The notes below the pieces were generated by a model. The model made no database searches. It saw only the letters and a program-made list of their open reading frames with translations, and was not told the DNA's origin. 32,355 bases of DNA from Deinococcales bacterium. GTDB taxonomy: Bacteria; Deinococcota; Deinococci; Deinococcales; JAAFIG01. Position 1 is the stretch's first letter, and every line of letters begins with the position of its first letter. Where the stretch lies: contig JAAFIG010000047.1 in assembly GCA_013298595.1 (NCBI GenBank), forward strand, positions 1 to 32,355. Reading direction: 5' to 3'. Shown piece by piece: positions 1 to 32,355 of this stretch. The position numbers and the translations under genes were made by a program.

Positions 1-87
1 GCGTTCTGGTTGTTTTTCTTGTTTGAAGCGTTGTTCCAGTTCTTGGCTACTTTCAGCCCAGTTGATTGGTTTTATTGTTCGGGTCAT
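1..87 (-). CDS. IS630-like transposase, N-terminal fragment (runs off window)
   Basis: An ATG at 85-87 (minus strand) opens a frame of 29 codons to the window edge. It begins MTRTIKPINWAESSQEL and continues with a charged stretch rich in Glu, Lys and Gln. This resembles the helical start of winged-helix IS630-type transposases, but no catalytic DDE residues are visible because the gene is cut by the edge. The same 29 residues are encoded at 32268-32355 on the plus strand. Presence of a coding frame is likely; the family is inferred. Confidence 0.5.
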   Translation of the reverse strand, partial: MTRTIKPINWAESSQELEQRFKQEKQPER

Positions 88-121
88 GTGTTTATTATGA
101 CTCACTTTCAAACCGCTTTGG
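1..121 (-). mobile_element. Left-edge fragment of an IS630-like insertion sequence
   Basis: These 121 bases are an exact reverse complement of 32234-32354, and identity continues through TA plus one more base (1-124). The element end reads CCAAAGCGGTTTGAAAG on the minus strand and abuts a TA dinucleotide (122-123), the target of IS630/Tc1-type elements. Only the 5' end of the element is inside the window and the rest runs off the left edge. Family assignment rests on the TA junction and on the short transposase start, so it is tentative. That this is a mobile repeat rests on the exact duplication. Confidence 0.7.
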
Positions 122-140
122 TATTACTCCCATTGGTCGG

Positions 141-171
141 AAATGTTTTAGCGTTTTTTGCTAAAACATTT
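141..171 (-). terminator. Perfect 12-bp hairpin downstream of the secreted-protein gene
   Basis: AAATGTTTTAGC (141-152) pairs exactly with GCTAAAACATTT (160-171) around a 7-nt loop. It starts 18 bases after the stop of the minus-strand gene at 190, between that gene and the IS. It is AT-rich and has only a short T run, so it could be a weak terminator or another hairpin element. Confidence 0.5.
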
Positions 172-189
172 CAAGAAGGTACTTAGCAT

Positions 190-1146
190 TTATTTCAGGT
201 TGCTAATATCAAACTCAGCTGTTCTCGAGCCATGCCATTTGAATTGCAATTTTTTGGCTTGCACATTTTTTGGCACTTCAATAATGGCTTTAAACGCAAG
301 TGTTTGTTTACCACCAAGTTCGGCAGAATCAAATGCGGTGTTTTGATTAGCCATAAATAACCCTTCGGATTCAGCACTTTGCTTGCCTGTTTGATCGGTA
401 TAAGAAACTTTAGCAAGACCACTGTACAAAGAAATTGCTTGTTTAGCTGGGTTATTGACTGTGAAATAAACAACCAACCAACGTCCGCCATCGGTTGGTG
501 CAACACCATCAAATTTTGCTGAACTAAACTCGAACTTATCTACTTTAAAATTACTTAACCCTGGGTAGACAACTGCCAGTTGAGCAGGGAAAATACGTAA
601 TGCACTCGAGCCATCCGCCACACGAGGGTCTTTGAACGGTGCTGGTAACCCTTGCACTTTACCTCGAGTATCGTATGTCCAAGAACTGTTCTGACAATCC
701 TCAACCATTAATTTTTGCAAACTGGTATCGGCATCCATTTCGACTCGAGTGACCACGTTCATTTTCTGACCTGCTTTGAATTCTGTGTCCACTGCTACTA
801 AGCTGCTCTGTTCGTACCAGTAACCATCCGTCTCAAGGTCTTCACTTTTAGAATCTAGCCCTGTAATACGAATTGAATCTGCGTTGATCGTGAATGCTTT
901 GGCTTGCGGGTTTTGCACTGTTAAATAGATCAGTAAACCTTTTCGATCATCTGGTAAGACATTGCTGGTATCGCCACCATCGTAAATATAATTACCAATG
1001 CTGTACTCGAGTTTGTTGATCTGGTACGAAACAGCATCACTTGTGCCTTTGCACAGTGTGTACATCTGTCCGAGCGTGGCTTGTTGGGTCTGGGCAAGTG
1101 CTACTGTTAAAATCGTACTACCTAATAATAAAATTGGTTTTTTCAT
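190..1146 (-). CDS. Secreted protein with two DUF4352-like beta domains
   Basis: This encodes 318 residues. The start at 1146 is chosen because AAGGAG lies 7 nt upstream and the protein then opens with a clear Sec signal peptide (MKKPILLLGSTILTVALAQ, cleavage likely near AQT). The mature part seems to contain two related halves, about residues 35-150 and 165-318. Each has a conserved core of the type GLLIYLTVQNP / RWLVVYFTVNNP followed by Ser/Thr-rich strands, the pattern of immunoglobulin-like DUF4352/telomeric-repeat-type extracellular domains. It is probably exported or periplasmic. Its role is unknown. It ends the minus-strand run ABC transporter then this gene, with a 103-bp gap that should hold its own promoter. 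Confidence 0.75.
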   Translation of the reverse strand: MKKPILLLGSTILTVALAQTQQATLGQMYTLCKGTSDAVSYQINKLEYSIGNYIYDGGDTSNVLPDDRKGLLIYLTVQNPQAKAFTINADSIRITGLDSKSEDLETDGYWYEQSSLVAVDTEFKAGQKMNVVTRVEMDADTSLQKLMVEDCQNSSWTYDTRGKVQGLPAPFKDPRVADGSSALRIFPAQLAVVYPGLSNFKVDKFEFSSAKFDGVAPTDGGRWLVVYFTVNNPAKQAISLYSGLAKVSYTDQTGKQSAESEGLFMANQNTAFDSAELGGKQTLAFKAIIEVPKNVQAKKLQFKWHGSRTAEFDISNLK

Positions 1147-1249
1147 GGTTTGCTCCTTATCAGCTTCACAATGATGCTGTGCCAATTGGAGAGCTTACAC
1201 GATTCTTTTTTGATTAAATGTAAAAAATCTGCAACATCGCCTTAATGTA

Positions 1250-3103
1250 CTACGCGTTTTTCTCAGAATAAAGCGGTGATGTTTCGGCAATTTCACGAAG
1301 TTGTGTCTCGGCAATTTCACGAAGTTGTGTTTCGGCGGCTTCACGAAGTTGTGTTTCGGCAATTTCACGAAATTGCAATTGATATAACTCTTTGTACAAA
1401 CCGCCTTGCTCGAGTAATTGTTCATGCGAACCAATTGCCGAAATTTGTCCAGACTCGAGTACCGCAATTCGGTCAGCGTTTCGGACTGTGCTTAATCGGT
1501 GAGCAATCACAAAAGTGGTTCGAGACTGCATTAAACGCTCGAGCGCATCTTGCACCAAAGCTTCGGATTCGTTATCTAAAGCACTGGTAGCTTCATCGAG
1601 AATAAGGATACGCGGATTTTTTAGAATCGCTCGGGCAATGGCGATGCGTTGCCGTTGCCCGCCTGATAATTTCATGCCACGTTCGCCAACCACTGTTTCA
1701 AGACCTTCCTCGAGGCGGTTAATAAACTCTAAGGCATTCGCGGCGGCGGCGGCGGCTTGCACTTCGGCATCGGTAGCATTTGCTCGCCCATACCGAATAT
1801 TCTCTAAGATACTGCCACTAAACAACTGGGTTTCTTGTGGCACCACACCAATCAAACCACGCAGTTGCTCGAGGCTTAAATCTCGAATGTCTACATTGTC
1901 TATTTTGATACTGCCTGCTGTGACATCATAAAACCGTGTGATTAAAGAAACAAAAGTGCTTTTACCTGAACCACTCGAGCCAACCAATGCCAGCACTTCA
2001 CCTGATTGCACAACCAAGTCAATGGCATCCAGAATCAAACCTTCACGGCTGGCGTACTTAAAACTGACTTGCTCAAATGTCACCTGAGCTTGGATATTCT
2101 CAAGACGAACTGGTTGGCTCGGTTGAGTTAAATCAGAGGGTGTATCAAGAATTTCAAAGATTCGACTTGAAGCTCCTAATGCTTCTTGAAATTGCGTAAA
2201 AATCCCACTCAAACTTGCCATTGCAGTCGAAACACCCAGTGCGTAAAACATAAAACTCACCAATGCCCCAGGGGTTAAATTCCCCTCGAGGGCTAAACGT
2301 CCACCATACCAAAGAATAAAACCAAGGCTCGAGAAACCAATAAAAAGCATGGTCGAACCAAACATTGAATTTAAAAGATTGCGTTTCATGGCAGTACGAA
2401 AAGTTGCAAAAACACCATCATTATATTTTTGTTGCTCGAATGGTTCGTTGGTAAAGCTTTGTACCACGCGGATATTACTCAAGGCTTCTTCGGCACTGGC
2501 ATTGGCTGCGGCAATTTTATCTTGCACTTCTTTAGAAAGTGCTCGGACTTTACGTCCAAAATAAATGGCACCAAAAACAATAAATGGTGTGATAAAAAGT
2601 GTTAATAATGCCAAACGCCAATTGGTAATAAACATCATGATGGCACTACCGATTAAAGAAATAATTTGGCTAAAACCATTAGCTAACGCACTCGAGGCAA
2701 CGGTTTGTACGGTGCTGGCATCCGAGGTTAAACGTGAAGTTAACTCACCAACTTTACGACTCTCAAAAAAGCCACTCGAAAGCGAAATAAGGTGCTTATA
2801 AACACTCTGACGCACATCCCGCACCACCGAGGAACCCACCAAAGCTAAACCATAAGACTGAGCAGCATTGAACACACCTTGTCCAAGTGCTACCAGAACC
2901 AGTAACACCACCACCGAATCTAACTGCGTTGTATCTTTACTCTCGAGATTCAAAAAGCTTGCATCCACCAAACGCCCCAGCACCTGCGGAAAGACCAAAC
3001 CCAAACCACTTGAAACCAGTGTTGCCAAACCCGCTAAAACCAAAATCAAACGATACGGTTTTGAATACTGTAATAAACGCAAAAACTGTTGATTAGAAGC
3101 CAC
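1250..3103 (-). CDS. ABC exporter, fused membrane and ATPase domains (BmrA/MsbA type)
   Basis: The 617-residue protein is a half-transporter expected to work as a dimer. Residues about 15-310 form the six-helix exporter membrane domain. The nucleotide-binding domain follows, with Walker A GSSGSGKST (375-383), Q-loop VVPQETQLFSG, signature LSGGQ (479-483), Walker B ILILDEATSALD (499-510) and switch His535 in VIAHRLSTV. All ATPase residues are intact, so it should be active; the substrate (lipid, drug or peptide) cannot be told. The start is a GTG at 3103, six nt after a TAGAAT -10 element, so the mRNA is probably leaderless. The C-terminus is unusual: residues 579-610 are an octapeptide repeat of the REIAETQL type. 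It is divergent from rlmH with only 21 bp between starts. Confidence 0.93.
   Translation of the reverse strand: MASNQQFLRLLQYSKPYRLILVLAGLATLVSSGLGLVFPQVLGRLVDASFLNLESKDTTQLDSVVVLLVLVALGQGVFNAAQSYGLALVGSSVVRDVRQSVYKHLISLSSGFFESRKVGELTSRLTSDASTVQTVASSALANGFSQIISLIGSAIMMFITNWRLALLTLFITPFIVFGAIYFGRKVRALSKEVQDKIAAANASAEEALSNIRVVQSFTNEPFEQQKYNDGVFATFRTAMKRNLLNSMFGSTMLFIGFSSLGFILWYGGRLALEGNLTPGALVSFMFYALGVSTAMASLSGIFTQFQEALGASSRIFEILDTPSDLTQPSQPVRLENIQAQVTFEQVSFKYASREGLILDAIDLVVQSGEVLALVGSSGSGKSTFVSLITRFYDVTAGSIKIDNVDIRDLSLEQLRGLIGVVPQETQLFSGSILENIRYGRANATDAEVQAAAAAANALEFINRLEEGLETVVGERGMKLSGGQRQRIAIARAILKNPRILILDEATSALDNESEALVQDALERLMQSRTTFVIAHRLSTVRNADRIAVLESGQISAIGSHEQLLEQGGLYKELYQLQFREIAETQLREAAETQLREIAETQLREIAETSPLYSEKNA
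1285..1380 (-). repeat. 24-bp tandem repeat, about 4 copies, coding for octapeptide repeats
   Basis: Units begin at 1285, 1309, 1333 and 1357. They are nearly identical (unit 3 differs in its first third, unit 4 decays at the end). The length is a multiple of three, so the repeat adds the octapeptide REIAETQL to the C-terminus of the ABC exporter without breaking the frame. Such in-frame arrays can change copy number by slippage. Confidence 0.93.
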
Positions 3104-3124
3104 TATGCTATTCTAACTCGATCA
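3104..3124. promoter_or_regulatory. Shared divergent promoter between ABC exporter and rlmH
   Basis: Only 21 bp separate the two start codons. On the minus strand TAGAAT (3110-3115) ends 6 nt before the GTG of the exporter. On the plus strand TATTCT (3109-3114) ends 10 nt before the ATG of rlmH. The two -10 boxes occupy nearly the same bases on opposite strands. No Shine-Dalgarno fits either gene, which points to leaderless transcripts. Confidence 0.55.
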
Positions 3125-3580
3125 ATGCGAATTCATATCATCACAGTTGGCACACCCAAACTCGAGTACGCCCAAATCGGTTGTGAGATGTACAGCACAC
3201 GTCTCGAGCGTTTTCATAAAATCAGATTTACCAGAGTACGTGACAGTAAAAAAAATGGTGAAACTGCCATGCTCGAGGAAGGTAACGCCATTCTTGAAGC
3301 CGTTGGTAAAGCATTTTTATTTGCACTAGACCCAAACGGACAGCAACTCGAGACACCAGCACTTGCCCAAAGACTCGAGACACTTGGTGTCAATGGCGAA
3401 GGGGAACTGGCTTTTTGTATTGGTGGTGATGAAGGACTTTCCAGTGCCGTAAAAACTCGAGCTAATAGCTTATGGAGTTTAAGTAAGCTGACATTCCCAC
3501 ATGATCTGGCACAATTGGTTTTACTCGAGGCGTTGTACCGAGCCAGTACAATCAGTGCTGGTGTGAAATACCATAAATAA
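3125..3580 (+). CDS. rlmH: 23S rRNA (pseudouridine1915-N3)-methyltransferase RlmH
   Basis: The 151-residue SPOUT-class methyltransferase uses SAM to methylate pseudouridine 1915 in helix 69 of 23S rRNA, acting on assembled ribosomes in the cytosol. The family signature is clear: FCIGGDEGL, then SLSKLTFPHDLAQLVLLEALYRA and a C-terminal GVKYHK. The usual length is about 155, so the gene is complete. The ATG at 3125 is chosen over an in-frame upstream start because MRIHIITVG matches the first beta strand of the family and the longer version would begin inside the divergent exporter. Seven CTCGAG sites fall in this short gene, six of them as Leu-Glu codon pairs. Confidence 0.95.
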   Translation: MRIHIITVGTPKLEYAQIGCEMYSTRLERFHKIRFTRVRDSKKNGETAMLEEGNAILEAVGKAFLFALDPNGQQLETPALAQRLETLGVNGEGELAFCIGGDEGLSSAVKTRANSLWSLSKLTFPHDLAQLVLLEALYRASTISAGVKYHK

Positions 3581-3587
3581 AAATTTG

Positions 3588-3602
3588 AGAAGCATTGCTT
3601 CT
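3588..3602. terminator. Short palindrome AGAAGCA/TGCTTCT between convergent genes
   Basis: The seven-base arms flank a single base, 7 nt after the rlmH stop and before the end of the convergent lipoprotein gene. There is no strong T tract, so use as a bidirectional terminator is only a suggestion. Confidence 0.35.
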
Positions 3603-3615
3603 TGAGTCAACATTT

Positions 3616-4257
3616 TTAGAATTTAAGTTTGCCAATTCCAGCCCCAAAGGTCAGGGTCACAACACAACCTTTTAAGCTGTTATCGCTCGAGAACAAGCGA
3701 AAAGCCACAATTGCAGAATTAGGTGTATTAACCCCCGATTTACTGACGATAGGTAGGATGCTCTGCCAAGTAAATGCCACGAATAAACCTTGGAATGCAC
3801 CTAAATTTGGTCCAAAGTCAGGTTCGTACTTGCCATCTGGTGTTTTGGTAAAAAGTACATTGACTGGTCCGACTTCATTGGTGATGTGGCTACGTTCGTT
3901 TGGAGCAATCCCATCTTTAACGCTGATAAACATTTTGGAAAAAGTTAGTGTCAAGCTATTTGGACTCGAGGCGCAGGTTTTGAACCGTGCAAATTTAACC
4001 TGAGGGGTGAAGCCTAAGGTAATTGGCACTGGGTTTTGTGGTGCATCGAAATCATCAAAATCACCTTTGAGACTTAGGTTAGCCGCCACGCCTTGGGGTT
4101 GAACTCGAGTTGCACTCAGGTCTTCTTCAAAGGTTGCATCTACAGTGGCATCGTCCAAGCCAAGTGCATTGGTTAATGGAATTTCTGGCAGTAGGCTTTG
4201 GCAAGCGCCCAAAAGCGCTAAGCTCGAGACGGCAAACAACAATATCTGCTTTTTCAT
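3616..4257 (-). CDS. Putative lipoprotein of unknown function
   Basis: This encodes 213 residues. The start at 4257 is supported by AAGGAG 8 nt upstream and by the lipoprotein signal that follows: MKKQILLFAVSSLALLGACQ, with lipobox LGAC and Cys21 as lipidation site. The mature part is acidic near its start (EEDLSATRVQ) and then looks like a beta-rich domain of about 140 residues ending LTFGAGIGKLKF. Two cysteines (in FKTCASS and KGCVVTL) could form a disulfide. I do not recognise the family. It stands alone, convergent with rlmH and divergent from the GGDEF gene, in a 235-bp intergenic region that contains two copies of AAGCGTCACAA. Confidence 0.8.
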   Translation of the reverse strand: MKKQILLFAVSSLALLGACQSLLPEIPLTNALGLDDATVDATFEEDLSATRVQPQGVAANLSLKGDFDDFDAPQNPVPITLGFTPQVKFARFKTCASSPNSLTLTFSKMFISVKDGIAPNERSHITNEVGPVNVLFTKTPDGKYEPDFGPNLGAFQGLFVAFTWQSILPIVSKSGVNTPNSAIVAFRLFSSDNSLKGCVVTLTFGAGIGKLKF

Positions 4258-4478
4258 AAGTGTTCTCCTTTTCACACTAAAAGTCTAAAAACCAAGCGTC
4301 ACAAAAAGCGTCACAAGTCTAAAAAATATTCTGGTACGTACTTTCTCGAGAAAAGGCAGAGAACTTTTCTCGCTGCTTGAGCATTTAGGTTTTGTTGTGG
4401 AATGCGGTTATAACGTTTGAGATACCCGTTAGAAGAATAATCGAAGGCAATGCCAGTTGTGGTGCTGGTTTTTAACGC

Positions 4479-4484
4479 TAATAT
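4479..4484 (+). promoter_or_regulatory. Putative -10 element (TAATAT) of the GGDEF gene
   Basis: TAATAT ends 8 nt before the TTG start at 4493. There is no Shine-Dalgarno, matching the leaderless arrangement seen elsewhere in the window. TATAAG at 4482 is an overlapping alternative. Confidence 0.4.
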
Positions 4485-4492
4485 AAGCGGTT

Positions 4493-5446: not shown

Positions 5447-5505
5447 GTAACTGTACACAATTGCTTAGCTTTCTAGCTCGAGGTGAAAAACCAATTGTCT
5501 GAAAA

Positions 5506-5542: not shown

Positions 5543-5584
5543 CAAAACCTTCACAACTCGAGTGGTAGAATCCTCGCTGGTTAA

Positions 5585-6613
<1,029 letters not shown>

Positions 6614-6625
6614 AAGATGTTAACC

Positions 6626-6678
6626 GTAGGGGTGAGGCATACGACCATGCCCGTATGGTCAAGAAGCCTCGCCCCTAC
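6626..6678. repeat. Nested hairpin repeat between gap and pgk (copy 1)
   Basis: Outer arms GTAGGGGTGAGGC (6626-6638) and GCCTCGCCCCTAC (6666-6678) pair with one G-T mismatch. Inside, GACCAT (6643-6648) pairs with ATGGTC (6655-6660). The same plan occurs at 7894-7947. It may act as an mRNA stabiliser or attenuator between gap and pgk, or simply be a small dispersed repeat. Confidence 0.85.
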
Positions 6679-6696
6679 ATTCAATTGGAGCTAATC

Positions 6697-7860
6697 ATGA
6701 AAACCCTGAATTCATTAGATGTTGCTGGTAAGCGCATTTTAGTGCGTGTGGATTACAATGTACCAGTCGAAAACGGTGTGGTCTCAGATGATACTCGCAT
6801 CACTGCTTCGCTGGAAACAATAAATCTGTTACTCGAGCGTGGTGCTGCAATTATTTTAATGTCGCATTTTGGTCGTCCTAAAGGCGTGGATGATAAGTAT
6901 CGTTTAGCCCCTGTTCACCCTGTACTCGAGAAGGTATTGGGTAAAAAAGTGTTGTATGTCACGTCCACACCTGCCAGTGCTGAGACAGCAACGGCACTCT
7001 CGAGCCTCAAAGCTGGTGAAGTTGCATTGCTCGAGAATGTGCGTTTTGAAGCGGGAGAAGAAAAAAATGATGCAACCCTCAATGCCGCACTGGCTAAACT
7101 TGGTGATGCCTTTGTCTTAGATGCCTTTGGTAGTGCTCATCGGGCGCACTCGAGTGTTTCGGGCGTGGCTGGTTTGTTACCGCATGCAGCTGGGTTGTTA
7201 CTTGAAAAAGAAATGGTGCAATTAACCAAATTACTCGAGCATCCTGTTGCACCGTATGTAGTGATTATTGGTGGCGCTAAAGTCTCAGATAAGTTAAAAG
7301 TGATCGAGAACCTGCTGCCTAAAGTGGACAAAATGCTGATTGGTGGTGGCATGGCATACACCTTTGTTAAAGCCATGGGTGGCAAAATTGGTAAGTCAAT
7401 CCATGAAGATGATTTCTTAGAGACTGCTAAACGGCTCCTCGAGCAATTTGGGTCTAAAATTGTGTTACCGACCGATACATTAGCTGGTGACAAATTCGCA
7501 GCTGATGCCAAAACACAAATCTTTGCCACCAACGCGATTCCCGATGATTGGGAAGGCATGGACATCGGACCAGAATCGCAAAAAGTCTTTGCAGCAACAC
7601 TCGAGAATGCCAAAACCGTTTTCTGGAACGGACCTATGGGTGTGTTTGAATTCCCAGCTTTTGCCAGCGGCACCAATGCTGTGGCAGCAGCACTGGCTAA
7701 AATTCAGAATGCGTTTACTGTGGTTGGTGGTGGCGACAGTGTCTCCGCAATTAACGAAACAGGGTACGCCGATAAAATAGACCATATTTCCACAGGTGGT
7801 GGCGCAAGTCTCGAGTTACTCGAGGGTAAAACCCTGCCTGGTGTGGCAGCATTGGATTAA
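6697..7860 (+). CDS. pgk: Phosphoglycerate kinase
   Basis: The 387-residue enzyme transfers phosphate from 1,3-bisphosphoglycerate to ADP. The hallmarks run in order: [61 protein letters not shown] and the nucleotide loop GGGDSVSAI with [13 protein letters not shown] near the end. Length is typical for bacterial PGK. The ATG at 6697 is preceded by GGAG and starts at the family's usual MKTLNSLDV. An earlier in-frame ATG at 6655 lies inside the hairpin repeat and is unlikely. Leu-Glu pairs are often, but not always, written CTC-GAG. It is flanked on both sides by the nested hairpin repeat. Confidence 0.97.
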
Positions 7861-9566: not shown

Positions 9567-10157
9567 TCAGAATTTCGGTTTACTGAAAGCAAGAAAATCT
9601 GAATTATCTGTCAGCTGAGACGTACCATCTACAATCAGTTTTGCTCGCTGCCAAGGGTGATCTGCTTCAAGAAATACTTGTTCAGCCGCTTGCCATTCAA
9701 ACCAAAAAGCGCGTCCTGCTTCGCCATCACGTTCTAAACCTCGTTTTTCAGCGATGTCTGACGCGGTTTCTATCCAAATAGGAAAATCTATCCATTCAGT
9801 AAATTCACGGCGAGTCGCAGAAACACCTTCTAAAATGAGCAGTGACGTTTTTGCGATTTCTATTGAACCTTGTCGTTGATGAGTCTTCCATGCTTGAGGA
9901 ATCCAATTGATTGGCTGTTGTGCTTTGAATGGCTTGAGAATATTTTCAATAAGGAGTTGATGCCAATCAAAAAAACTGTGATTCCAAGCGATATCATCCG
10001 TATGAACAATTGGTGCCTGTAACAACTTCGAGAGTTTGGTAGCAAAGGTGGTTTTACCAGAAGCACTTCTGCCATCTATGGCTACAATGGCAGGCTGTTT
10101 TAGGCTTTGCAACTGCAAAATCAAGGCGTTGAACGTTTGAATGGTAAATGTTGTCAT
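9567..10157 (-). CDS. Uridine kinase-like P-loop NTPase
   Basis: This encodes 196 residues. Walker A is AIDGRSASGKTT (27-37 region), followed by a DDIAW motif like the substrate Asp of the uridine/cytidine kinase group, and a Walker B-like strand LLILEGVSATRRE. The arrangement suggests a small-molecule kinase, possibly for a nucleoside, but the substrate is not clear. It is complete for this family. A TATAGT -10 ends five nt before the ATG. The gene lies in the longest CTCGAG-free stretch of this part of the window (9458-10239), unlike its neighbours, which may mean recent arrival. Confidence 0.8.
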   Translation of the reverse strand: MTTFTIQTFNALILQLQSLKQPAIVAIDGRSASGKTTFATKLSKLLQAPIVHTDDIAWNHSFFDWHQLLIENILKPFKAQQPINWIPQAWKTHQRQGSIEIAKTSLLILEGVSATRREFTEWIDFPIWIETASDIAEKRGLERDGEAGRAFWFEWQAAEQVFLEADHPWQRAKLIVDGTSQLTDNSDFLAFSKPKF

Positions 10158-10220: not shown

Positions 10221-10676
10221 TCAAGGTTTACTACGATCACTCGAGTCTATGATAATGGTCACTGGTCCATCGTTAAGCAAATTCACTTTCATATCGGTTT
10301 GAAAAATACCTTCTTGTACCTCGAGTTGTTCATTGCGGAGCGCTTCGCAGAATTCGCGGTATAAGCGTCTGCCATCTTCGGCACTGGCGGCTTCAATAAA
10401 ACTTGGGCGATTACCACCTCGAGTATCGGCGTACAAAGTAAATTGTGAAACGGCTAATACTGCCCCACCGATTTGCTCGAGCGATAAATTCATTTTGCCT
10501 GCTTGGTCGTTAAAAACCCGTAACTTGGCTATTTTTCGGGCAAGGTAGGTAGCGTCTTCTCGAGTGTCGGATTTTTTAACACCAAGTAAAACCAAAAAAC
10601 CTTGTTCGATACTCGAGACAATTTTGTTATCCACAGTCACACTAGCACTACTGACCCGTTGAATAACAGCTCTCAT
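10221..10676 (-). CDS. dtd: D-aminoacyl-tRNA deacylase
   Basis: The 151-residue homodimeric enzyme hydrolyses D-amino acids (and misacylated glycine) from tRNA. The start MRAVIQRVSSASV and the two conserved motifs SQFTLYAD and NDGPVTI that form the active site across the dimer are present. The usual length is about 145-150. The ATG at 10676 is used because the family begins MRAV; the longer in-frame reading would run back into the upstream gene. AGGTG precedes it by 7 nt. It follows the DUF1844-like gene by 19 bp, probably as one operon. Confidence 0.96.
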   Translation of the reverse strand: MRAVIQRVSSASVTVDNKIVSSIEQGFLVLLGVKKSDTREDATYLARKIAKLRVFNDQAGKMNLSLEQIGGAVLAVSQFTLYADTRGGNRPSFIEAASAEDGRRLYREFCEALRNEQLEVQEGIFQTDMKVNLLNDGPVTIIIDSSDRSKP

Positions 10677-10695
10677 AGCTGCACCTGATACAGAT

Positions 10696-10968
10696 TCATG
10701 CTTCGGCTTTCTCGAGCGGGGTTTCGGCAAGTAATTTGCTAACACTTTGTACGGCATCGGTTAAGGTGCTGGCTTCATCGGCATTTAAGTTGCCTCGAGT
10801 TTTTTGTACCAGCATCTCGAGTAAACGCAAACTGCGTTCGGCAGTGGCTCGGTTACGGGTTACACCATCGCGGTGCATTCGGGCAGTTAAGGCATTGTAC
10901 TGCCCAAGGCTGGTTTCGGCAGCGGCAGTTAAACTATGAATTAATCCCAGAAAATCGGTGTTGGTCAT
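10696..10968 (-). CDS. DUF1844-like small helical protein
   Basis: The 90-residue, probably cytosolic and all-helical protein has a central segment LRLLEMLVQKTRGNLNADE. This matches the DUF1844 pattern (leucine-rich helix, then K-T-x-GNL and an acidic turn). No function is known for this family. It is first in a likely two-gene unit with dtd. A TACGCT box ends 7 nt before the ATG. Three CTCGAG sites are present. Identification rests on this short motif and overall length. Confidence 0.65.
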   Translation of the reverse strand: MTNTDFLGLIHSLTAAAETSLGQYNALTARMHRDGVTRNRATAERSLRLLEMLVQKTRGNLNADEASTLTDAVQSVSKLLAETPLEKAEA

Positions 10969-13655: not shown

Positions 13656-13903
13656 TGCCACTCGAGATCGCTGGGAAGTTACCTGAATTGGCTGGTGTTG
13701 ATGCCTTTCTCGAGGTGCTTGGTCATTCTGTGCATGTTGCCCAACTCAGTGTTGGCAAAGTGTGTGGCGGCAGGGTTTCAGCGGTGTGGTTTGGCAGTTC
13801 ACTCGAGATATATTCCAGCACCCTCGAGCCTTTTGAATTAACCGATGCGACTTTGTGCCGTACTCGAGCACTCGAGTTTATTGGGCAATTAGATCTACTT
13901 TGA
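13655..13903 (+). CDS. Small conserved-looking protein coupled to ftsB-like gene, unknown
   Basis: The 82-residue ORF has an ATG that shares its first base with the stop of the ftsB-like gene (TAATG), with AAGGTG just upstream, so translation is probably coupled. The protein has no signal or membrane segment. It reads as a small alpha/beta domain (GKVCGGRVSAVWFGSSLEIYS). Six CTCGAG sites lie in 250 bp, the densest in any gene here, and its Leu-Glu pairs largely arise from them. I do not recognise the family. Confidence 0.65.
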   Translation: MPLEIAGKLPELAGVDAFLEVLGHSVHVAQLSVGKVCGGRVSAVWFGSSLEIYSSTLEPFELTDATLCRTRALEFIGQLDLL

Positions 13904-25381: not shown

Positions 25382-25389
25382 GCGTAGGA

Positions 25390-25589: not shown

Positions 25590-25661
25590 TCATTGTTAGC
25601 TCTCACATGCCCCCTTGCTACGTTCGACCCCTCAAATCGCTAAGGTCAAAGGCTGTATAAC

Positions 25662-26990
25662 TCATTCAAAGTACAAACTCCACGGACGACGTATTCGTCG
25701 TTGCAAGGCGTAACGCATAATGGCTCGAGCCAGGCGTTTTGCGTCGTGTTGGGCGTTGCCACCTCGGATCAGGGTGGTTTCAACCACTTCGATACCTCTC
25801 ATTCGGATGGCATCGAAATCGGGTTTGACTGGTATGGATTGGACTTTAGCGTATTGCTCGAGGGTGCTTTGGTGGATGCTGGCAGTGTTGACAAGGATTG
25901 CATCAGGGGTTCGTCCAAGGTGGTGAACAATAACTTGGATGTGCTCGAGCAGGGTCATATGGTCAGTTTCGCCCGGTTCGGTCATGATATTAGCGATGTA
26001 GACAAGTTTAGCTCGGGTTTTTTGAATGGTGTTTTTTAATGCGGGTACAAGTAATGGCGGTGTTAGGCTGGTGTATAAACTGCCCGGTCCAACAAGAATG
26101 ATTTCGGCTTCGTTGATGGCTTCGATGGCGGCTTCTGGGGCGGTGATGTTTTCTGGCTCAAGGCTGAGGTTAGCGATGCGTCTGCCAGCTCGTTCGGATG
26201 ACATGGTGCTTTCGCCTCGGATGATAGTGCCATCTTCAAGGTGGGTGATGAGTACGGCTGGCTCGAGACTGGCAGGTAAGACAATGCCGCGCACATCAAG
26301 GATTTCGTTGACGGCAAGGGTGGCTTCGGCAAAATTGTGGCGTTGTTCGGCAAGGGTGGCAATTAAGAGGTTACCGAAGGTGTGTCCGTTGATGTCGCCT
26401 CGAGTGAAACGGTGGGTCAGTAATTCTTTGAGCACTGGGCTGTCGGAAAGAGCGGCGTAACAATCGGTTAAATCGCCTGGAGCTGGCATTTGTAATCCTT
26501 GGCGTAATCGTCCGCTCGAGCCACCATCGTCGGTAACAGCAACAATAGCAGTCAGATTACTCGAGTACCCTTTTAAGCCCGATAACAAATTGGATAAACC
26601 CGTGCCGCCACCAATGGCAACAATACGTGGTCCTCGAGTCAGGGCACGTTTGCGAAAGATCATGTCGAGGGTTTCGGTGGGACTCGAGCCAAGCGCACCG
26701 AGTAAGCTGCGATTTAAGCCAAGGATGCCAAGAATGCCAAGCAATAAGCCACCAAAGAAACCAATACCCATTAAGCCCCAGCGTCCAAAGCCAATGGATT
26801 CAGAAAATTCGATCAGACGGGCTGTCCAGTTGATAAAGTTATTACGTTCTGGTCCAACGCGTGCCCATGCAACAAAAGCGAGGGTCAGTACCAGTAAGCC
26901 GATCATAATCAGGACAATAAAGCGTTTAACACGTAAGCCTGGAACAAACCAGCGCCACAAGCCAAAGAAAATTTCGCGTTTACGGGGCAT
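25662..26990 (-). CDS. yvcK: YvcK-like gluconeogenesis/envelope factor with membrane anchor
   Basis: This encodes 442 residues. Two transmembrane helices (about 23-44 and 71-92) precede a full YvcK/CofD-like domain beginning at 122: IVAIGGGTGLSNLLSGLK (GGGTG at 127-131), IVAVTDDGGSSGRLR, GHTFGNLL and PGSLYTSLTPPLLVP. In Bacillus YvcK is soluble, binds UDP-sugars and is needed for growth on gluconeogenic carbon and for cell wall synthesis; the N-terminal anchor here places it at the membrane. Its ATG overlaps the stop of rapZ (TAATG), so it is translated together with that gene. Confidence 0.92.
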   Translation of the reverse strand: MPRKREIFFGLWRWFVPGLRVKRFIVLIMIGLLVLTLAFVAWARVGPERNNFINWTARLIEFSESIGFGRWGLMGIGFFGGLLLGILGILGLNRSLLGALGSSPTETLDMIFRKRALTRGPRIVAIGGGTGLSNLLSGLKGYSSNLTAIVAVTDDGGSSGRLRQGLQMPAPGDLTDCYAALSDSPVLKELLTHRFTRGDINGHTFGNLLIATLAEQRHNFAEATLAVNEILDVRGIVLPASLEPAVLITHLEDGTIIRGESTMSSERAGRRIANLSLEPENITAPEAAIEAINEAEIILVGPGSLYTSLTPPLLVPALKNTIQKTRAKLVYIANIMTEPGETDHMTLLEHIQVIVHHLGRTPDAILVNTASIHQSTLEQYAKVQSIPVKPDFDAIRMRGIEVVETTLIRGGNAQHDAKRLARAIMRYALQRRIRRPWSLYFE

Positions 26991-27835
26991 TACGCGCCGC
27001 CTTCGCCACGACCAATATCGCGGTGCTCGAGTTGTACAGTGTAACTACTCGAGAAATCACGGGCGAGGGCTTCAGTGACAGCGACACTGCGGTGAAAGCC
27101 GCCTGTACAACCAACAGCAACGCTGTAACTCGAGCGTCCTGAGGCTTTGGCTCGTGTTAAGTTCAGTGCGAGGAATTCTCGCATTTCGTTGTAAAAAGCG
27201 GTGCCATCGGCGGTAAAAACGTGTTCAGCAACTTCTGACTCGAGTCCGCTTTGGGTTTTTAAATTGGCATCCCAGTAGGGGTTGGGTAAACTGCGAGCAT
27301 CTACGACCAAGTCTGCATCGGTGGGTGCGCCGTGTTTAAAGCCAAAACTAAATAAGGTGACTTGAAAACCAGCTTGGTTGCCAGCGTAAAGCGCACGGAG
27401 GCGTTCGATTAAATCTCGAGCTTTGAGGTTTGAGGTGTCTATGATCGCATCAGCACGTTCACGTAGCCCTTCGAGTACTCGACGTTCTTCGCGTAAATCG
27501 CCGAGCAAAGTGGGTTCGCCAAGTGGATGCGAGCGTCTGGTTAGACCATAGCGGCGTACCAATACATCGTCGTCGGCATCCAAGAAAACCAGTTCGGGAT
27601 GGGCTGTGGTTTGTACCATGGCAAATGCCATCTCGAGATCGGCTAAGAAAAATCGGGTTCGGGCATCTGTGACCACTGCCACGCGTTCGATACCTCGCGC
27701 CGTGCAACCTGTTAATAAGGCTGTCCAAAGCATTGGTGGTAGGTTGTCGGTGACAAAAAAACCAAATTCCTCGAGTGCTTGTAAGGCTGTAGTTTTACCA
27801 GCACCACTTCGCCCTGAAACTATGACAAACCGCAT
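26990..27835 (-). CDS. rapZ: RapZ-type P-loop nucleotide-binding protein
   Basis: This encodes 281 residues. Walker A is GRSGAGKTT (8-16), then TDNLPPMLW and FLDADDDVLVRRY. The conserved C-terminal domain has FSFGFKHGAPTDADLVVDARSLPNP and VGCTGGFHRSVAVTEALA. In E. coli RapZ binds small RNAs and UDP-GlcNAc-pathway metabolites to control glmS; in other phyla it pairs with yvcK, as here. An ATG at 27835 lies six nt after TAATCT. Confidence 0.95.
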   Translation of the reverse strand: MRFVIVSGRSGAGKTTALQALEEFGFFVTDNLPPMLWTALLTGCTARGIERVAVVTDARTRFFLADLEMAFAMVQTTAHPELVFLDADDDVLVRRYGLTRRSHPLGEPTLLGDLREERRVLEGLRERADAIIDTSNLKARDLIERLRALYAGNQAGFQVTLFSFGFKHGAPTDADLVVDARSLPNPYWDANLKTQSGLESEVAEHVFTADGTAFYNEMREFLALNLTRAKASGRSSYSVAVGCTGGFHRSVAVTEALARDFSSSYTVQLEHRDIGRGEGGA

Positions 27836-27841
27836 AGCAGC

Positions 27842-27847
27842 AGATTA
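27842..27847 (-). promoter_or_regulatory. Putative -10 (TAATCT) of the rapZ-yvcK operon
   Basis: It ends six nt before the ATG at 27835. No Shine-Dalgarno is seen. Confidence 0.5.
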
Positions 27848-28208
27848 GCAGATGAAGAAAAGTAAAAATGAGGAAGCTATTGTAATAGGTGGTTATAGCT
27901 CGAGCTTATTTGAAAATAGTTTGATTTGTCTGGCTGCTATGATGCTTTGAAAGAACAGTAACTGATATAGCGCATTGATGACTTTCTGATCCCTGTCCTT
28001 TTCCTAAGTTAATTTTCAGACCGATTGGTTTTTTTCTTGTCGTCCCAAACAGCACAACTACGCGAATTTGTACTGAGTATAAAATTTTTACTATACTCGA
28101 GAAGTGATTTTTTCGCCTTTCTAAAAGCACTTTTCTTCACTCGAGTTATCAAGATTTTCTTGAGCAGAATCGCAAACCAAACAACTGTTCTATTCACATC
28201 TTTGGGCG
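27848..28208. other. AT-rich divergent intergenic region, no convincing gene
   Basis: This 361-bp gap lies between rapZ (minus) and the E1alpha gene (plus). It holds several short open frames on both strands, but none has a start signal or recognisable protein. It is distinctly more AT-rich than its neighbours. Three CTCGAG sites are present (about 27900, 28097, 28140). It is long enough to hold regulation of the dehydrogenase operon, but I could not define an operator. Confidence 0.6.
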
Positions 28209-28214
28209 TAAAAT
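28209..28214 (+). promoter_or_regulatory. Putative -10 (TAAAAT) of the 2-oxoacid dehydrogenase operon
   Basis: TAAAAT ends nine nt before the ATG at 28224. No Shine-Dalgarno and no clear -35 box. Confidence 0.45.
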
Positions 28215-28223
28215 AGCAACCCT

Positions 28224-29372
28224 ATGGCAACCTCCCGCCGTACCACCAAGAAAGGTGCTGCCGATACAGCGAACCATGCCGTGTTCGCTGGCAGTATGCC
28301 TGTAACTTCCGAACTCACACCTTTTCAAATCCTCGCACCAGACGGCACACCCGTGCGTGAAGATTTGATCCCAGACCTCGATTTAGTCGAGGAGATGTAT
28401 CGTCAAATGGCGCGCTTACGGCATTTAGACGATAAATTCATGACCCTGTATAAAAGCCAAAAACTTGGTAATTATGCGCAATTTGGTGGTCAGGAAGCCA
28501 GCCAAATTGGTAGTGCAATGGCATTGGATCAAAACCTAGACTTTCTCTGCCCAATGTACCGCAATACCGCTGCCATGATTACCCACGGTTGGAGCTTAAA
28601 AAACGCCATCATGTATTGGCGTGGTCATCCAGAAGGCTGGCGCATCCCCGACGACCTCAACATCTTACCAGTCATCATCAGTATTCCAGGACAAATTGTC
28701 CATGCAGCAGGTGTGGCAATGGGTTTACAAATGAAGAAAACAGGTGGGGTCGCCATGACCTATATTGGCGAAGGTGGCACATCCCAAGGCGATTTCCACA
28801 TTGGTGTGAATTTCGCTTCGGCACGTAACGCACCAGCTGTTTTTATTATTGAAAACAATGGCTGGGCAATATCTGTGCCGCGCAAAGTGCAATCAGGTGT
28901 GGATTATTTAATGCGCCGTTCCGAAGGCTACGGTATTCCGGGCTATTTGGTAGATGGCAACGATATTTTAGCAGTCCACACCGTAGCTAAAAAAGCGGTA
29001 CAAGATGCTCGGGATGGCAAAGGTCCAAGTTTAATTGAACAAATGACGTACCGAATTAGACCCCACACCACAGGCGACGACCCTAAAGCGTACCGCGATG
29101 AAAACGGCGATCCAAAATTCTGGGCAGAAAACCGCGACCCTATCCAACGCGTCAAACGTTTCTTAACAACCGAAAAACGCTGGAACGACGACCGCGAAGT
29201 TGCCATGATGGCAGAAATCGAAACCGAATTCCAAGCCGCTCTCGAGGCAGCCGATAATTTTGCAGCACCTGACCCCAAAGCCTTACTCGAGTATGTGTTT
29301 GTTAATCCTCCAGTGCAAATTCTCGAGCAACAAGCCATTTTAGCTGAACGTATCAAGGAAGTGAACGCATGA
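28224..29372 (+). CDS. 2-oxoacid (pyruvate or branched-chain) dehydrogenase E1 alpha
   Basis: The 382-residue thiamine diphosphate subunit decarboxylates the 2-oxoacid. The TPP motif begins at GEGGTSQGD (182-190) and ends at ENNGWAIS (210-217). YAQFGGQEASQIGSAMAL and YRIRPHTTGDDP are typical of the two-subunit E1. The first 20 residues are a polar tail (TSRRTTKKGAADT). Pyruvate and branched-chain enzymes cannot be separated by eye. The coding region lacks CTCGAG for its first kilobase, perhaps because the sequence is strongly constrained. Its stop overlaps the next start (ATGA). Confidence 0.92.
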   Translation: MATSRRTTKKGAADTANHAVFAGSMPVTSELTPFQILAPDGTPVREDLIPDLDLVEEMYRQMARLRHLDDKFMTLYKSQKLGNYAQFGGQEASQIGSAMALDQNLDFLCPMYRNTAAMITHGWSLKNAIMYWRGHPEGWRIPDDLNILPVIISIPGQIVHAAGVAMGLQMKKTGGVAMTYIGEGGTSQGDFHIGVNFASARNAPAVFIIENNGWAISVPRKVQSGVDYLMRRSEGYGIPGYLVDGNDILAVHTVAKKAVQDARDGKGPSLIEQMTYRIRPHTTGDDPKAYRDENGDPKFWAENRDPIQRVKRFLTTEKRWNDDREVAMMAEIETEFQAALEAADNFAAPDPKALLEYVFVNPPVQILEQQAILAERIKEVNA

Positions 29373-30382
29373 CCCAAGTCCTTGAAAAAACCGAAACCAA
29401 AACACTTACCATGGCAGCAGCTATCACAGATGCAATGGATGTGATGCTTGACCGTGATCCAAGTGTTGTTATTTATGGCGAAGACGTTGGCAACTTAGGT
29501 GGTGTTTACCGCATCACTACGGGTTTACAAAAAAAGCATGGCGAAGACCGCGTGTTCGATAGTCCACTGACCGAAAGCGGCATTATTGGTACAGCCATTG
29601 GTGCTGGCGCAGTTGGTATGCGCCCCGTAGTCGAATTGCAATTTGGTGGCTTTATGATGCCCGCCTTTGACCAAATTTTTAGCCATGTCAGCAGGTATCG
29701 TTACCGCAGCCGTGGGCGTTACAAAGTACCAATGGTAGTGCGTTTTCCTGTTGGTGGTGGCACAGGTTTACTCGAGCAGCACGCTGATAGCCCAGAAGCT
29801 TACCTTGCCCATTCACCCGGTATTAAAGTGGCATACCCAAGCAATCCATACGATGCTAAAGGGCTTTTAATCAGTGCTATCGAAGATGACGACCCTGTGT
29901 TTTTCTTTGAAACCATTGTTCGTTACCGCGATCCAAAAATTCGTATGGAAGTACCAACAGGGTATTACAACATCCCACTCGGTAAAGCCAGAATTGCTCG
30001 AGAAGGCAAAGATGTCACTATTATTGGTTACGGCGGCATGATGCAAAACATTGAAACGGCTGCTGACGCAGCGGCTAGCGCTGGTATTCAATGCGAAATC
30101 ATAGACCTACGCACCATTGTGCCACTGGATATCGAAACTATTCTCGAGAGTGTTGCCAAAACAGGACGAGTGATTATTGTTCACGAAGCCACCAAAACTG
30201 CGGGTATTGGCGCTGAAATTGCGGCACAAATCATGGAAAAAGCCTTTTACGAACTGGAAGCTCCCATCGAACGTGTGTGTAGTTTCGACACCATGCCAAG
30301 CCCGTTTAACAGCCTCAATCACTTCTCGAGACCCGAAGCGCACCATATTGCAGCGGCAATTAAAAAAGTGCTCAGCGCGTAA
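29369..30382 (+). CDS. 2-oxoacid dehydrogenase E1 beta
   Basis: The 337-residue partner of E1 alpha forms the alpha2beta2 heterotetramer and completes the thiamine site. Motifs are YGEDVGNLGGVYRITTGLQ, ESGIIGTAIGAGAVGMRPVVELQF, LLEQHADSPEAYLAHSPGIKV and the C-terminal domain DLRTIVPLDIETILESVAKTGR. The ATG overlaps the E1 alpha stop by four bases (ATGA) with AAGGAAG upstream, so the two are made in equal amounts. Confidence 0.95.
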   Translation: MTQVLEKTETKTLTMAAAITDAMDVMLDRDPSVVIYGEDVGNLGGVYRITTGLQKKHGEDRVFDSPLTESGIIGTAIGAGAVGMRPVVELQFGGFMMPAFDQIFSHVSRYRYRSRGRYKVPMVVRFPVGGGTGLLEQHADSPEAYLAHSPGIKVAYPSNPYDAKGLLISAIEDDDPVFFFETIVRYRDPKIRMEVPTGYYNIPLGKARIAREGKDVTIIGYGGMMQNIETAADAAASAGIQCEIIDLRTIVPLDIETILESVAKTGRVIIVHEATKTAGIGAEIAAQIMEKAFYELEAPIERVCSFDTMPSPFNSLNHFSRPEAHHIAAAIKKVLSA

Positions 30383-30416
30383 AAGTGGTCGCCCGCATTT
30401 GCATTATGCTCAAACA

Positions 30417-30437
30417 GGGCGGGTGCGAAACCCGCCC
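30417..30437 (+). repeat. Strong hairpin GGGCGGGT/ACCCGCCC between E1 beta and E2
   Basis: Eight-base perfect arms (30417-30424, 30430-30437) close a GCGAA loop, 12 nt before the E2 Shine-Dalgarno. It could stabilise the upstream mRNA or tune E2 translation, or be another small dispersed repeat. Confidence 0.7.
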
Positions 30438-30460
30438 CAACGAATACTAGGAGAAACCCC

Positions 30461-31870
30461 ATGCCCGAAATGCTGATGCCCGTGATGGCAGAATCCATTG
30501 CCGAAGCCGAAATCCTCAAATGGATGGTCAAAGAAGGCGACACTGTAACCGAAGGTCAGATGATTGCCGAAATCATGACCGATAAAGTCACCACCGAAAT
30601 TCCAGCGCCTTACTCGGGAAAGCTCGAGAAAATTCTGGCTCCTGAAGGAACTGTGGTGCAAATCAAACAAGCCATAGCGATTATTGGGGATGGCGCAGCA
30701 GCCAGCACACCAGCTCCTGTGGCTGCACCTGCTGCCAGCAAACCTGCTCTGAAACTGGGTGATGACAGCCAAAGCGCCACCGAAAGCGCTACCAACAGCA
30801 GTTATGGTATGCCAACCAAAGCGGTGGCTTTGGATTTCGGTAATGCTGCCAAAGCTGCCACCTCGAGTAGTGTTAAAGCAGCGGGTACCAACAAATTTGG
30901 ACGACCACTGGCTGTACCTGCGGCTCGTAAGATGGCTCGAGAAGCTGGTATTGACATTATGGAAGTACCTGGCAGTGGTCCAAATGGGCGTGTTGGGGTC
31001 GAAGATGTCAAAGATTATGTCGAAGTTGTATCTGCCAGCACGTATGGTGGCACAACCGTCAAACCAAGCGCTGCACCTGTGGTTGTTGCACCAGCAGTAA
31101 CCTCGAGTAGTAGTGGCGGTATGACCGTACCACCACCGCAGTACCGCACCCCAAAAGGACTCGAGCATCTCGAGACTCGGACACCGTTGCGGGGCATGCG
31201 CCGAGTGATTAGTAACGCGATGGTTGCCAGCCATTTGTACACAGTACGCACCTTAACAGTGGATGAAGTCAATTTTACGGCTTTGGTTGAATTACGTGAA
31301 CGTTTAAAACCAGCCGCTGAAAAAGCTGGTGTGAAAATCACATACTTGCCATTTATTTTTAAAGCCGTTGCCAGCGCCTTAAAAGCCTTCCCAAATGTCA
31401 ATAGCAGTTACGATGAAGCTACTGGGGAAGTTGTCCATAAGCAATACTTCAACATTGGTTGTGCTGTGGACACCGAAGCAGGTTTAATTGTACCTGTTGT
31501 TAAAAACGTGGACAGTAAGAGCATTCTCGAGATTGCTAAAAGCATTTCAGATTTAGCAGGTAAAGCTCGGGAAGGCAAACTTGCACCCGACGAAATCAGT
31601 GGCTCGAGTTTTGCAGTTACCAATATCGGTAGTGCAGGTAGTTTATTATCTTTCCCAATTATTAACGCCCCAGATGCAGCAATTCTTGGTGTGCATACCA
31701 TCGTGGATCGTCCGATTGTCAAAGATGGTCAGATTGTAATTGGCAAAATGATGTACCTCAGCTTATCCTTCGATCATCGTTTAATTGATGGTGCTGAAGC
31801 AGCAAGGTTCGTTAAACACTTAACACGTTTACTCGAGAATCCAGATATGTTGTTGCTCGAAGCGATTTAA
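30461..31870 (+). CDS. 2-oxoacid dehydrogenase E2, dihydrolipoyl acyltransferase
   Basis: The 469-residue core subunit carries one lipoyl domain (1-77) with lipoyl-lysine Lys42 in MTDKVTTE. An Ala/Pro/Ser-rich linker follows, then an E3-binding domain (about 146-187, VPAARKMAREAGIDIMEV, GPNGRVGVEDV), a second flexible linker, and the catalytic domain (about 235-469) with the active-site DHRLIDG (His439, Asp443). The ATG follows AGGAG by 7 nt. E3 (lipoamide dehydrogenase) is not in the window. It is last in the operon and followed by a strong terminator. Tandem Ser-Ser-type CTCGAGTAG sites sit in the linkers. Confidence 0.95.
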   Translation: MPEMLMPVMAESIAEAEILKWMVKEGDTVTEGQMIAEIMTDKVTTEIPAPYSGKLEKILAPEGTVVQIKQAIAIIGDGAAASTPAPVAAPAASKPALKLGDDSQSATESATNSSYGMPTKAVALDFGNAAKAATSSSVKAAGTNKFGRPLAVPAARKMAREAGIDIMEVPGSGPNGRVGVEDVKDYVEVVSASTYGGTTVKPSAAPVVVAPAVTSSSSGGMTVPPPQYRTPKGLEHLETRTPLRGMRRVISNAMVASHLYTVRTLTVDEVNFTALVELRERLKPAAEKAGVKITYLPFIFKAVASALKAFPNVNSSYDEATGEVVHKQYFNIGCAVDTEAGLIVPVVKNVDSKSILEIAKSISDLAGKAREGKLAPDEISGSSFAVTNIGSAGSLLSFPIINAPDAAILGVHTIVDRPIVKDGQIVIGKMMYLSLSFDHRLIDGAEAARFVKHLTRLLENPDMLLLEAI

Positions 31871-31901
31871 AGAAAAAGGTAGAGGAATTAGAGAAAAGTT
31901 C

Positions 31902-31935
31902 AAAGAGGAAAGCCTAAAACTTTCCTCTTTTTTTT
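31902..31935 (+). terminator. Rho-independent terminator of the 2-oxoacid dehydrogenase operon
   Basis: AAAGAGGAAAG (31902-31912) and CTTTCCTCTTT (31920-31930) pair perfectly around a 7-nt loop and end in a run of Ts to 31935. It is the best terminator in the window and also faces the convergent gene remnant. Confidence 0.92.
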
Positions 31936-31941
31936 GCGGTT

Positions 31942-32232
31942 TTAATCAAACCGAATGGCTTTTCGCCAAACTTGAAATCGTCGCCAGAAGCATTGTGCTC
32001 GAGTTTCATTGACTTGCACAATTGGTAATCCAAGGCGTTGCAAAATGTCTTTTGCTAACAGCTCGAGCGGAAGATTTTCGGTATTGATTTGCGTGGCAAA
32101 CATTGGGTCTTGTAAAGCAAGGATGCAGCGCTCGAGATTCCCCAGAGCAAATTGATTGTTGCCGTCACCGCGTTTACGTAATCTGCGACGAATTTCTTGG
32201 CTTGATGCAGTCAGGGCAAAGTGATGTATTAT
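31942..32232 (-). pseudogene. 3' remnant of an AAA_33-like ATPase/kinase gene cut by the IS
   Basis: About 96 codons run from the IS junction to the stop. The protein HFALTASSQEIRRRLRKRGDG followed by LGNLERCILALQDPMF and INTENLPLELLAKDILQRLGLPI is the C-terminal part of the small P-loop kinase-like ATPases (AAA_33/shikimate-kinase fold). The Walker A half is missing. The frame stays open into the IS up to an ATG at 32289, but those first residues come from IS DNA. The N-terminal half is expected on the far side of the IS copy, outside this window. Confidence 0.65.
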
Positions 32233-32233
32233 A

Positions 32234-32355
32234 CCAAAGCGGTTTGAAAGTGAGTCATAATAAACACATGACCCGAACAATAAAACCAATCAACTGGGCT
32301 GAAAGTAGCCAAGAACTGGAACAACGCTTCAAACAAGAAAAACAACCAGAACGCA
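32234..32355 (+). mobile_element. Right-edge fragment of an IS630-like insertion sequence
   Basis: This is the exact inverted copy of bases 1-121. It begins CCAAAGCGG after a TA (32232-32233) and continues past the window edge. It interrupts the ATPase remnant. Both IS copies point outward, so the window is a segment between two inverted copies. Confidence 0.7.
32268..32355 (+). CDS. IS630-like transposase, N-terminal fragment (runs off window)
   Basis: ATG at 32268 opens 29 complete codons identical to the left-edge copy, cut by the right edge. It begins 34 bases inside the element. Confidence 0.5.
   Translation, partial: MTRTIKPINWAESSQELEQRFKQEKQPER

What the first reader, a model, noticed from the sequence alone, without database searches (positions are those of the whole stretch)
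1..32355. CTCGAG is a genome-shaping iterated palindrome, about 25 times over-represented
About 200 CTCGAG sites by hand count in 32.4 kb against 6-8 expected. Sites are in nearly every gene, on both strands and in all frames, and also between genes. The behaviour is like HIP1 (GCGATCGC) in cyanobacteria, at higher density and in a different sequence; I know of no described CTCGAG system of this kind. Such a load needs an active force: a DNA-binding or methylating protein, a mismatch-repair bias, a segregation or uptake signal, or conversion toward the palindrome.
Basis: partly seen in the sequence, partly recalled or inferred. Interest (0 to 1): 0.92.

Follow-up and report, generated by a model that had tools for sequence, protein, structure and literature searches.

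The report
Genome-wide hyperabundant CTCGAG palindrome in Deinococcota
In a family of uncultured relatives of Deinococcus and Thermus, the six-letter DNA palindrome CTCGAG occurs about every 170 bases across the whole genome, 40-75 times more often than expected, and has even changed protein sequences, which points to an unknown protein that reads this word and pulls the genome towards it.

Summary
The window has 202 CTCGAG sites; 2-6 are expected. The whole genome has 27,159 in 4.58 Mb, against 15 of the reversed word GAGCTC. All four genomes of this family and two of the sister family have 5.9-7.7 sites/kb; a third sister genome is intermediate, and a fourth has lost the excess.

The force acts on DNA. 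It works in all three reading frames and equally between genes. It takes 66% of Leu-Glu codon pairs (5.8% expected) and has doubled Leu-Glu dipeptides in proteins. Sites are remade independently in diverged orthologues wherever the protein allows. All nine one-base neighbours are discriminated about equally. Foreign islands lack sites. In genes, neighbouring sites repel each other within about 20 bp. Other 6-bp palindromes are avoided in the same genomes.

No XhoI nuclease or shared CTCGAG-type methyltransferase was found, so the standard explanation for HIP1-like repeats is not met. The DNA-uptake channel ComEC is absent in the two low-CTCGAG genomes that were tested and lack it. I favour a self-DNA uptake signal spread by molecular drive; the reader protein is unidentified.

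The parts
1..32355. Whole window (entire contig C42 of genome G000): 202 CTCGAG sites, one per 160 bp; all positions listed
3089..3580 (+). Densest gene in the window: 163-aa ORF with 7 sites (14.3/kb), 7 of its 10 codon contexts that could hold a site do so
10221..10757 (-). 178-aa ORF with 7 sites (13.1/kb), 7 of 8 possible contexts used
13802..13876 (.). Non-coding cluster of four sites (13802, 13823, 13863, 13871): the load is not a codon effect
10794..10821 (.). Non-coding pair of sites 22 bp apart
9567..10157 (-). Contrast: 196-aa ORF with no site and 0 of 3 possible contexts used

Best explanation
CTCGAG is the recognition word of a sequence-reading protein, and the genome is pulled towards it by a weak but universal directional force. 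Each site is favoured about 20-80-fold over any one-base neighbour at equilibrium, a scaled bias of roughly 3-4.4. SHOWN: the force acts on the intact 6-bp DNA word, in every frame and between genes, afresh in each lineage, and strongly enough to change amino acids. It shows local exclusion of about 20 bp between neighbouring sites in genes, and it has not yet acted on recently acquired DNA. INFERRED: the most likely engine is biased uptake of self DNA in natural transformation. DNA carrying CTCGAG is preferentially bound by a surface or pilus receptor, imported through ComEC and recombined in, so sites ratchet upward by molecular drive until mutation balances them. The receptor is not identified.
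For: Genome-wide excess in all family members, lost in one member of the sister family. All three frames: 1316 vs 31 expected Leu-Glu, 558 vs 29 and 418 vs 38 in the other frames; intergenic density equal. In non-coding DNA all nine one-step neighbours are near normal frequency while CTCGAG is 48x, so all six bases are read and no single mutation type drives it. Diverged orthologues use the same permissive context whether or not the relative does: P(B|A) 0.80 vs P(B|not A) 0.77 for Leu-Glu in G000-G006. Leu-Glu dipeptide O/E 2.2-2.5 against Glu-Leu 1.0, and 1.08 in site-poor G004. Foreign-looking islands use 7/50, 5/26 and 2/40 of their contexts, against a median of 0.60 per gene. Interference below about 20 bp in coding DNA of four genomes survives within-gene permutation, and other direct or inverted repeats show little or none of it. 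No bias around gene starts; rpoC, EF-G and dnaK carry normal loads. ComEC is present in all ten tested genomes with a strong excess and at least 90% complete, and absent in low-CTCGAG G004 (97% complete) and G110 (96%). Scarcity in newly acquired DNA and relatively even spacing are documented for known uptake sequences (PMC7811141).
Against: Known uptake words of Haemophilus and Neisseria are longer and not palindromic, and lie about 1 kb apart in Haemophilus (PMC1939737, PMC7811141). They are under-represented in coding DNA (PMC7811141); this word is not in G000. Thermus has ComEC but takes up DNA without apparent sequence preference (PMC6561018) and shows only a 2-4x excess. The ComEC contrast rests on two losses among 16 genomes, several chosen for their low counts, and the Markov O/E of G110 is unknown. 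Some interference reflects avoidance of mRNA hairpins (other GC-matched inverted repeats about 0.5-0.9 within 14 bp), and it is weaker in non-coding DNA. No receptor was found.
Confidence: 0.38

Rival explanations
1. Intracellular DNA-binding protein: an abundant nucleoid-associated or chromosome-organising protein binds CTCGAG as a dimer with a footprint of about 20 bp, and weak selection keeps sites at a density of about one per 150 bp.
For: A palindrome suits a homodimer. Neighbour exclusion below 20 bp and even spacing (600-bp counts less dispersed than the null in G000 and G006). Uniform discrimination against all neighbours. Use in all frames and between genes.
Against: No candidate protein found. 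No depletion at promoters or in highly expressed genes. It does not predict absence in ComEC-less genomes.
Confidence: 0.27
2. Methylation-linked HIP: an orphan CTCGAG methyltransferase marks the sites, and methyl-directed repair or selection accumulates them, as proposed for cyanobacterial HIP1 (PMC4390886).
For: Every over-represented cyanobacterial HIP was linked to a putative methyltransferase (PMC4390886). XhoI-type methyltransferases do exist in this phylum: 10 of 111 genomes match, mostly Meiothermus, Calidithermus and Trueperaceae.
Against: No enzyme is shared by the four family genomes in PF00145, PF01555, PF07669, PF02384 or PF02086. The XhoI-type enzyme is absent from G000, G005, G006 and the whole sister family, and only a distant homologue (27%) is in G007. 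One-off words are not biased to particular positions, whereas HIP1 deviations are (PMC4390886). Density far exceeds the about 1 per kb at which that model saturates.
Confidence: 0.17
3. Intracellular biased gene conversion or mismatch repair that favours CTCGAG in heteroduplexes, without uptake specificity or any benefit.
For: Independent re-creation everywhere; weak uniform bias; no positional preference.
Against: A repair enzyme usually favours certain mismatches, but the bias is much the same for transitions and transversions at all positions. It does not by itself explain exclusion below 20 bp or the shortage of gaps over 300-400 bp in G000.
Confidence: 0.13
4. Compositional or codon artefact, or a chance local cluster.
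For: CTC and GAG are common codons in GC-rich relatives; Thermus and Trueperaceae excesses of 2-5x may be partly of this kind.
Against: This genome is 45-46% GC. All frames and intergenic DNA are affected, the reversed word is nearly absent, and 27,159 sites are spread genome-wide.
Confidence: 0.01

Closest known systems
HIP1 (GCGATCGC) and alternate HIPs of cyanobacteria (Elhai 2015, PMC4390886)
   Same: A GC-rich palindrome in great excess across genes and intergenic DNA, lost in some lineages. No agreed function.
   Different: Different word; about 5,900-7,700 per Mb against 500-2,500 per Mb for most HIPs. No shared methyltransferase found. Deviations spread evenly over positions. Different phylum.
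DNA uptake sequences (Neisseriaceae DUS, Pasteurellaceae USS)
   Same: A short word at high genomic density, poor in newly acquired DNA, relatively evenly spaced, explicable by molecular drive (PMC7811141).
   Different: DUS/USS are 9-12 bp and not palindromes. The densest DUS is 5,918 in 2.4 Mb (PMC3630211). Uptake specificity has not been tested here.
Campylobacter jejuni methylated RAATTY uptake code (CtsM)
   Same: A short palindromic word used for self-DNA recognition at uptake (PMC10046745, PMC8468864).
   Different: It depends on a dedicated methyltransferase, CtsM; no counterpart shared across this family was found.
XhoI/PaeR7I-type restriction-modification (CTCGAG)
   Same: Same recognition word; nuclease and methyltransferase homologues occur in the phylum.
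   Different: No nuclease in any high-density genome of the two families, and no methyltransferase except a distant homologue in G007. Restriction would predict avoidance of the site, not excess.

Membership tests
Highly iterated palindrome (HIP-like) | Palindromic word grossly over-represented genome-wide | tested here: met
   27,159 sites; 55-69x by Markov models in a 428-kb sample
Highly iterated palindrome (HIP-like) | Present in coding and non-coding DNA in all frames | tested here: met
Highly iterated palindrome (HIP-like) | Associated with a methyltransferase for the word | tested here: not met
   None shared within the family; XhoI-type enzyme absent from G000, G005, G006 and the sister family. 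Caveat: draft genomes, 91-94% complete
Highly iterated palindrome (HIP-like) | One-off variants concentrated at particular positions | tested here: not met
   compared with PMC4390886
DNA uptake sequence (DUS/USS) | Genomic enrichment of a short word | tested here: met
DNA uptake sequence (DUS/USS) | Depleted in newly acquired DNA | tested here: met
   Islands in L107, L302, L355
DNA uptake sequence (DUS/USS) | Depleted in coding relative to non-coding DNA | tested here: inconclusive
   Equal in G000 and L001; modestly higher between genes in G006 and about twofold in G007
DNA uptake sequence (DUS/USS) | Competence machinery present | tested here: met
   ComEC in all four family genomes; absent in G004 and G110. 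Only ComEC tested
DNA uptake sequence (DUS/USS) | Word increases DNA uptake | not testable with these tools
   Needs uptake assays
XhoI/PaeR7I restriction-modification | Cognate endonuclease gene | tested here: not met
   PF04555 found only in G012-G014 and broken in G108

The most novel reading that the evidence does not exclude
A 6-bp palindromic self-recognition word that is not marked by a conserved methyltransferase has nearly saturated whole genomes and rewritten proteomes, through biased DNA uptake or an unknown dimeric DNA-reading protein, in a phylum where uptake is thought to be unspecific. It would be the densest iterated palindrome I know of, of a class distinct from HIP1 and from DUS/USS.
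Probability: 0.5. Interest if true: 0.9.

Novelty: new variant of a known kind. Interest (0 to 1): 0.82.

Why it matters
HIP1 has been known since the 1990s without an agreed cause. This system is denser and simpler (one 6-bp word), lacks the methyltransferase that dominates HIP thinking, and comes with a natural gain-and-loss series across Deinococcota. That makes the causes separable: uptake drive, protein binding, methylation or repair. It also shows that a DNA-level drive can double a dipeptide's frequency in a proteome, which matters for reading protein evolution. CTCGAG is the XhoI site, so cloning and restriction mapping of such DNA would be badly affected.

Tried and rejected
Chance or composition: rejected. 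Conserved CTCGAG methyltransferase: five Pfam families searched in 15 genomes and sequences clustered, none shared across the family; XhoI nuclease and its gamma-class methyltransferase sought in 111 genomes. L073 (514-aa TaqI-like methyltransferase in G000) was first suspected, but it has no orthologue in the other family genomes. Regulatory role: no preference around gene starts. Helical or nucleosome-like periodicity: no consistent period. Hairpin avoidance as the whole cause of interference: only partial. A first reading of the interference as a pure DNA footprint was softened, because it is weaker in non-coding DNA, where CTCGAG is often an arm of terminator-like hairpins. XhoI-bearing genomes as a natural knock-down: not clear-cut.

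Full report
OBSERVATION. The window is one whole contig of a draft genome (G000, 4.58 Mb, 94% complete). It holds 202 CTCGAG sites (positions): 181 in genes, 21 between. Base composition predicts 6.3; Markov models with the sites masked predict about 2. The whole genome has 27,159 sites, one per 169 bp, while the reversed word GAGCTC occurs 15 times. The nearest named relatives are MAGs labelled Deinococcales (Deinococcota) with 75-79% identity at a pyruvate dehydrogenase subunit.

DISTRIBUTION ACROSS THE PHYLUM. The other three genomes of the family have 26,619-28,178 sites each. In the sister family G002 (58% complete) has one per 129 bp, G003 one per 160 bp, G001 one per 280 bp, and G004 one per 3.4 kb, which is at or below its expectation. 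In sampled loci, Meiothermus and Calidithermus show 5-12x, Trueperaceae about 3-5x and Thermus 2-4x. The excess is therefore phylum-wide in weak form, extreme here, and lost in places.

NATURE OF THE FORCE. (a) It acts on DNA, not codons. In G000, 66% of Leu-Glu pairs are CTC-GAG against 5.8% expected from codon usage; 63% and 37% of permissive contexts in the other two frames are also CTCGAG; density between genes is the same (O/E by frame). (b) It reads all six bases. In non-coding DNA CTCGAG is 48-fold over expectation while each of the nine one-step neighbours is at 0.6-2.2; the implied bias is 3.1-4.4 natural-log units for every neighbour, somewhat smaller for transitions, as decay products would give. 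(c) It recurs. Among reciprocal-best orthologues of genomes with near-saturated synonymous sites, a Leu-Glu pair in G006 is CTCGAG 80% of the time if G000 has the site and 77% if it does not; within the genus some inheritance remains (odds ratio 7.7). For the rarer contexts of the other two frames some association remains between G000 and G006 (odds ratios near 5), against 2.5 for an ordinary codon. Positions are therefore largely not conserved as such; permissive contexts are filled anew. (d) It bends proteins. Leu-Glu dipeptides are 2.2-2.5 times expectation in the family, Glu-Leu 1.0; Leu-Glu is 1.08 in G004. (e) It needs time. A polysaccharide gene cluster and two other foreign-looking islands are nearly free of sites.

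SPACING. Given the contexts that could hold a site, two sites closer than about 20 bp are depleted to 0.3-0.6 of expectation, recovering to about 0.9 by 23-24 bp, pooled over four genomes. This survives permutation within gene and frame (0 of 500 in each genome). Other direct repeats show no such depletion, and GC-matched inverted repeats in genes only a milder one within about 14 bp. In non-coding DNA the effect is weaker and masked by CTCGAG arms in terminator-like hairpins; without extended stems the ratios are 0.51, 0.66 and 0.83 at 6-8, 9-14 and 15-20 bp. I read this as partly hairpin avoidance and partly steric exclusion by a bound protein. In G000 and G006, 600-bp counts are less dispersed than the null (0.91 vs 1.15; 1.07 vs 1.33), but not in G005 or G007.

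OTHER PALINDROMES. In the same genomes most other GC-containing 6-bp palindromes are avoided: median O/E 0.17-0.38, against about 1.0 for non-palindromes. Summed O/E is 0.97-0.99 in G004, 0.77-0.81 in G001, 0.63 in Meiothermus, and 0.32 and 0.47 in G002 and G003. The avoided set is largely shared between genera. Restriction pressure is the ordinary explanation; the correlation with the CTCGAG excess is unexplained.

SEARCH FOR A CAUSE. DNA methyltransferases are numerous and variable in these genomes, but none is shared by the four family members. The XhoI nuclease occurs only in three genomes of another genus and as a broken gene in G108. The adjacent gamma-class methyltransferase of G108 has matches in 9 other genomes, but not in G000, G005, G006 or the sister family; G007 has a distant one. 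This fails the methyltransferase criterion that all cyanobacterial HIPs meet (PMC4390886). The competence channel ComEC, in contrast, is in all ten strong-excess genomes tested that are at least 90% complete, and is missing from G004 and G110, both low in CTCGAG. The sample is small and partly chosen, and Thermus has ComEC with little excess. So ComEC may be necessary but is not sufficient.

INTERPRETATION. What is shown is a sequence-specific, frame-blind, recurrent, weak directional force with local exclusion. What is inferred is a protein that reads CTCGAG. I rank biased self-DNA uptake first (0.38), an intracellular binding protein second (0.27), methylation-linked accumulation third (0.17) and neutral conversion fourth (0.13).

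LITERATURE. Searches of the held open-access library found no description of CTCGAG as an iterated word in any bacterium. A key later HIP1 paper, which as I recall reports conserved HIP1 positions, is not held, so that contrast rests on memory only.

Noticed in passing
whole genome G000; also G002, G003, G005, G006, G007: Broad avoidance of most other GC-containing 6-bp palindromes, shared between genera and tracking the CTCGAG excess.
   Followed up: partly
window and G000, G005, G006 samples: GGCC is almost absent (O/E 0.00-0.02). An m5C methyltransferase cluster (L033/L036/L035/L034, 59-74% identical) is shared by G000, G005, G003 and G097, but GGCC is not strongly avoided in G003 (0.70).
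   Followed up: partly
L104:16818, L111:11704, L113:8197, L117:4841: CTCGAG pairs form arms of terminator-like hairpins between genes.
   Followed up: partly
L107:12800-20000; L302:8000-12300; L355:7259-11141: A polysaccharide gene cluster and two defence-like islands nearly free of CTCGAG: the word can flag recent horizontal transfer in these genomes.
   Followed up: yes
L360-L362 (G012-G014); L363, L364, L368 (G108): XhoI-type restriction genes sit next to two unrelated methyltransferase classes; the G108 nuclease gene is broken by stops.
   Followed up: partly
G004, G110: No ComEC found despite 96-97% completeness, suggesting loss of natural transformation.
   Followed up: no
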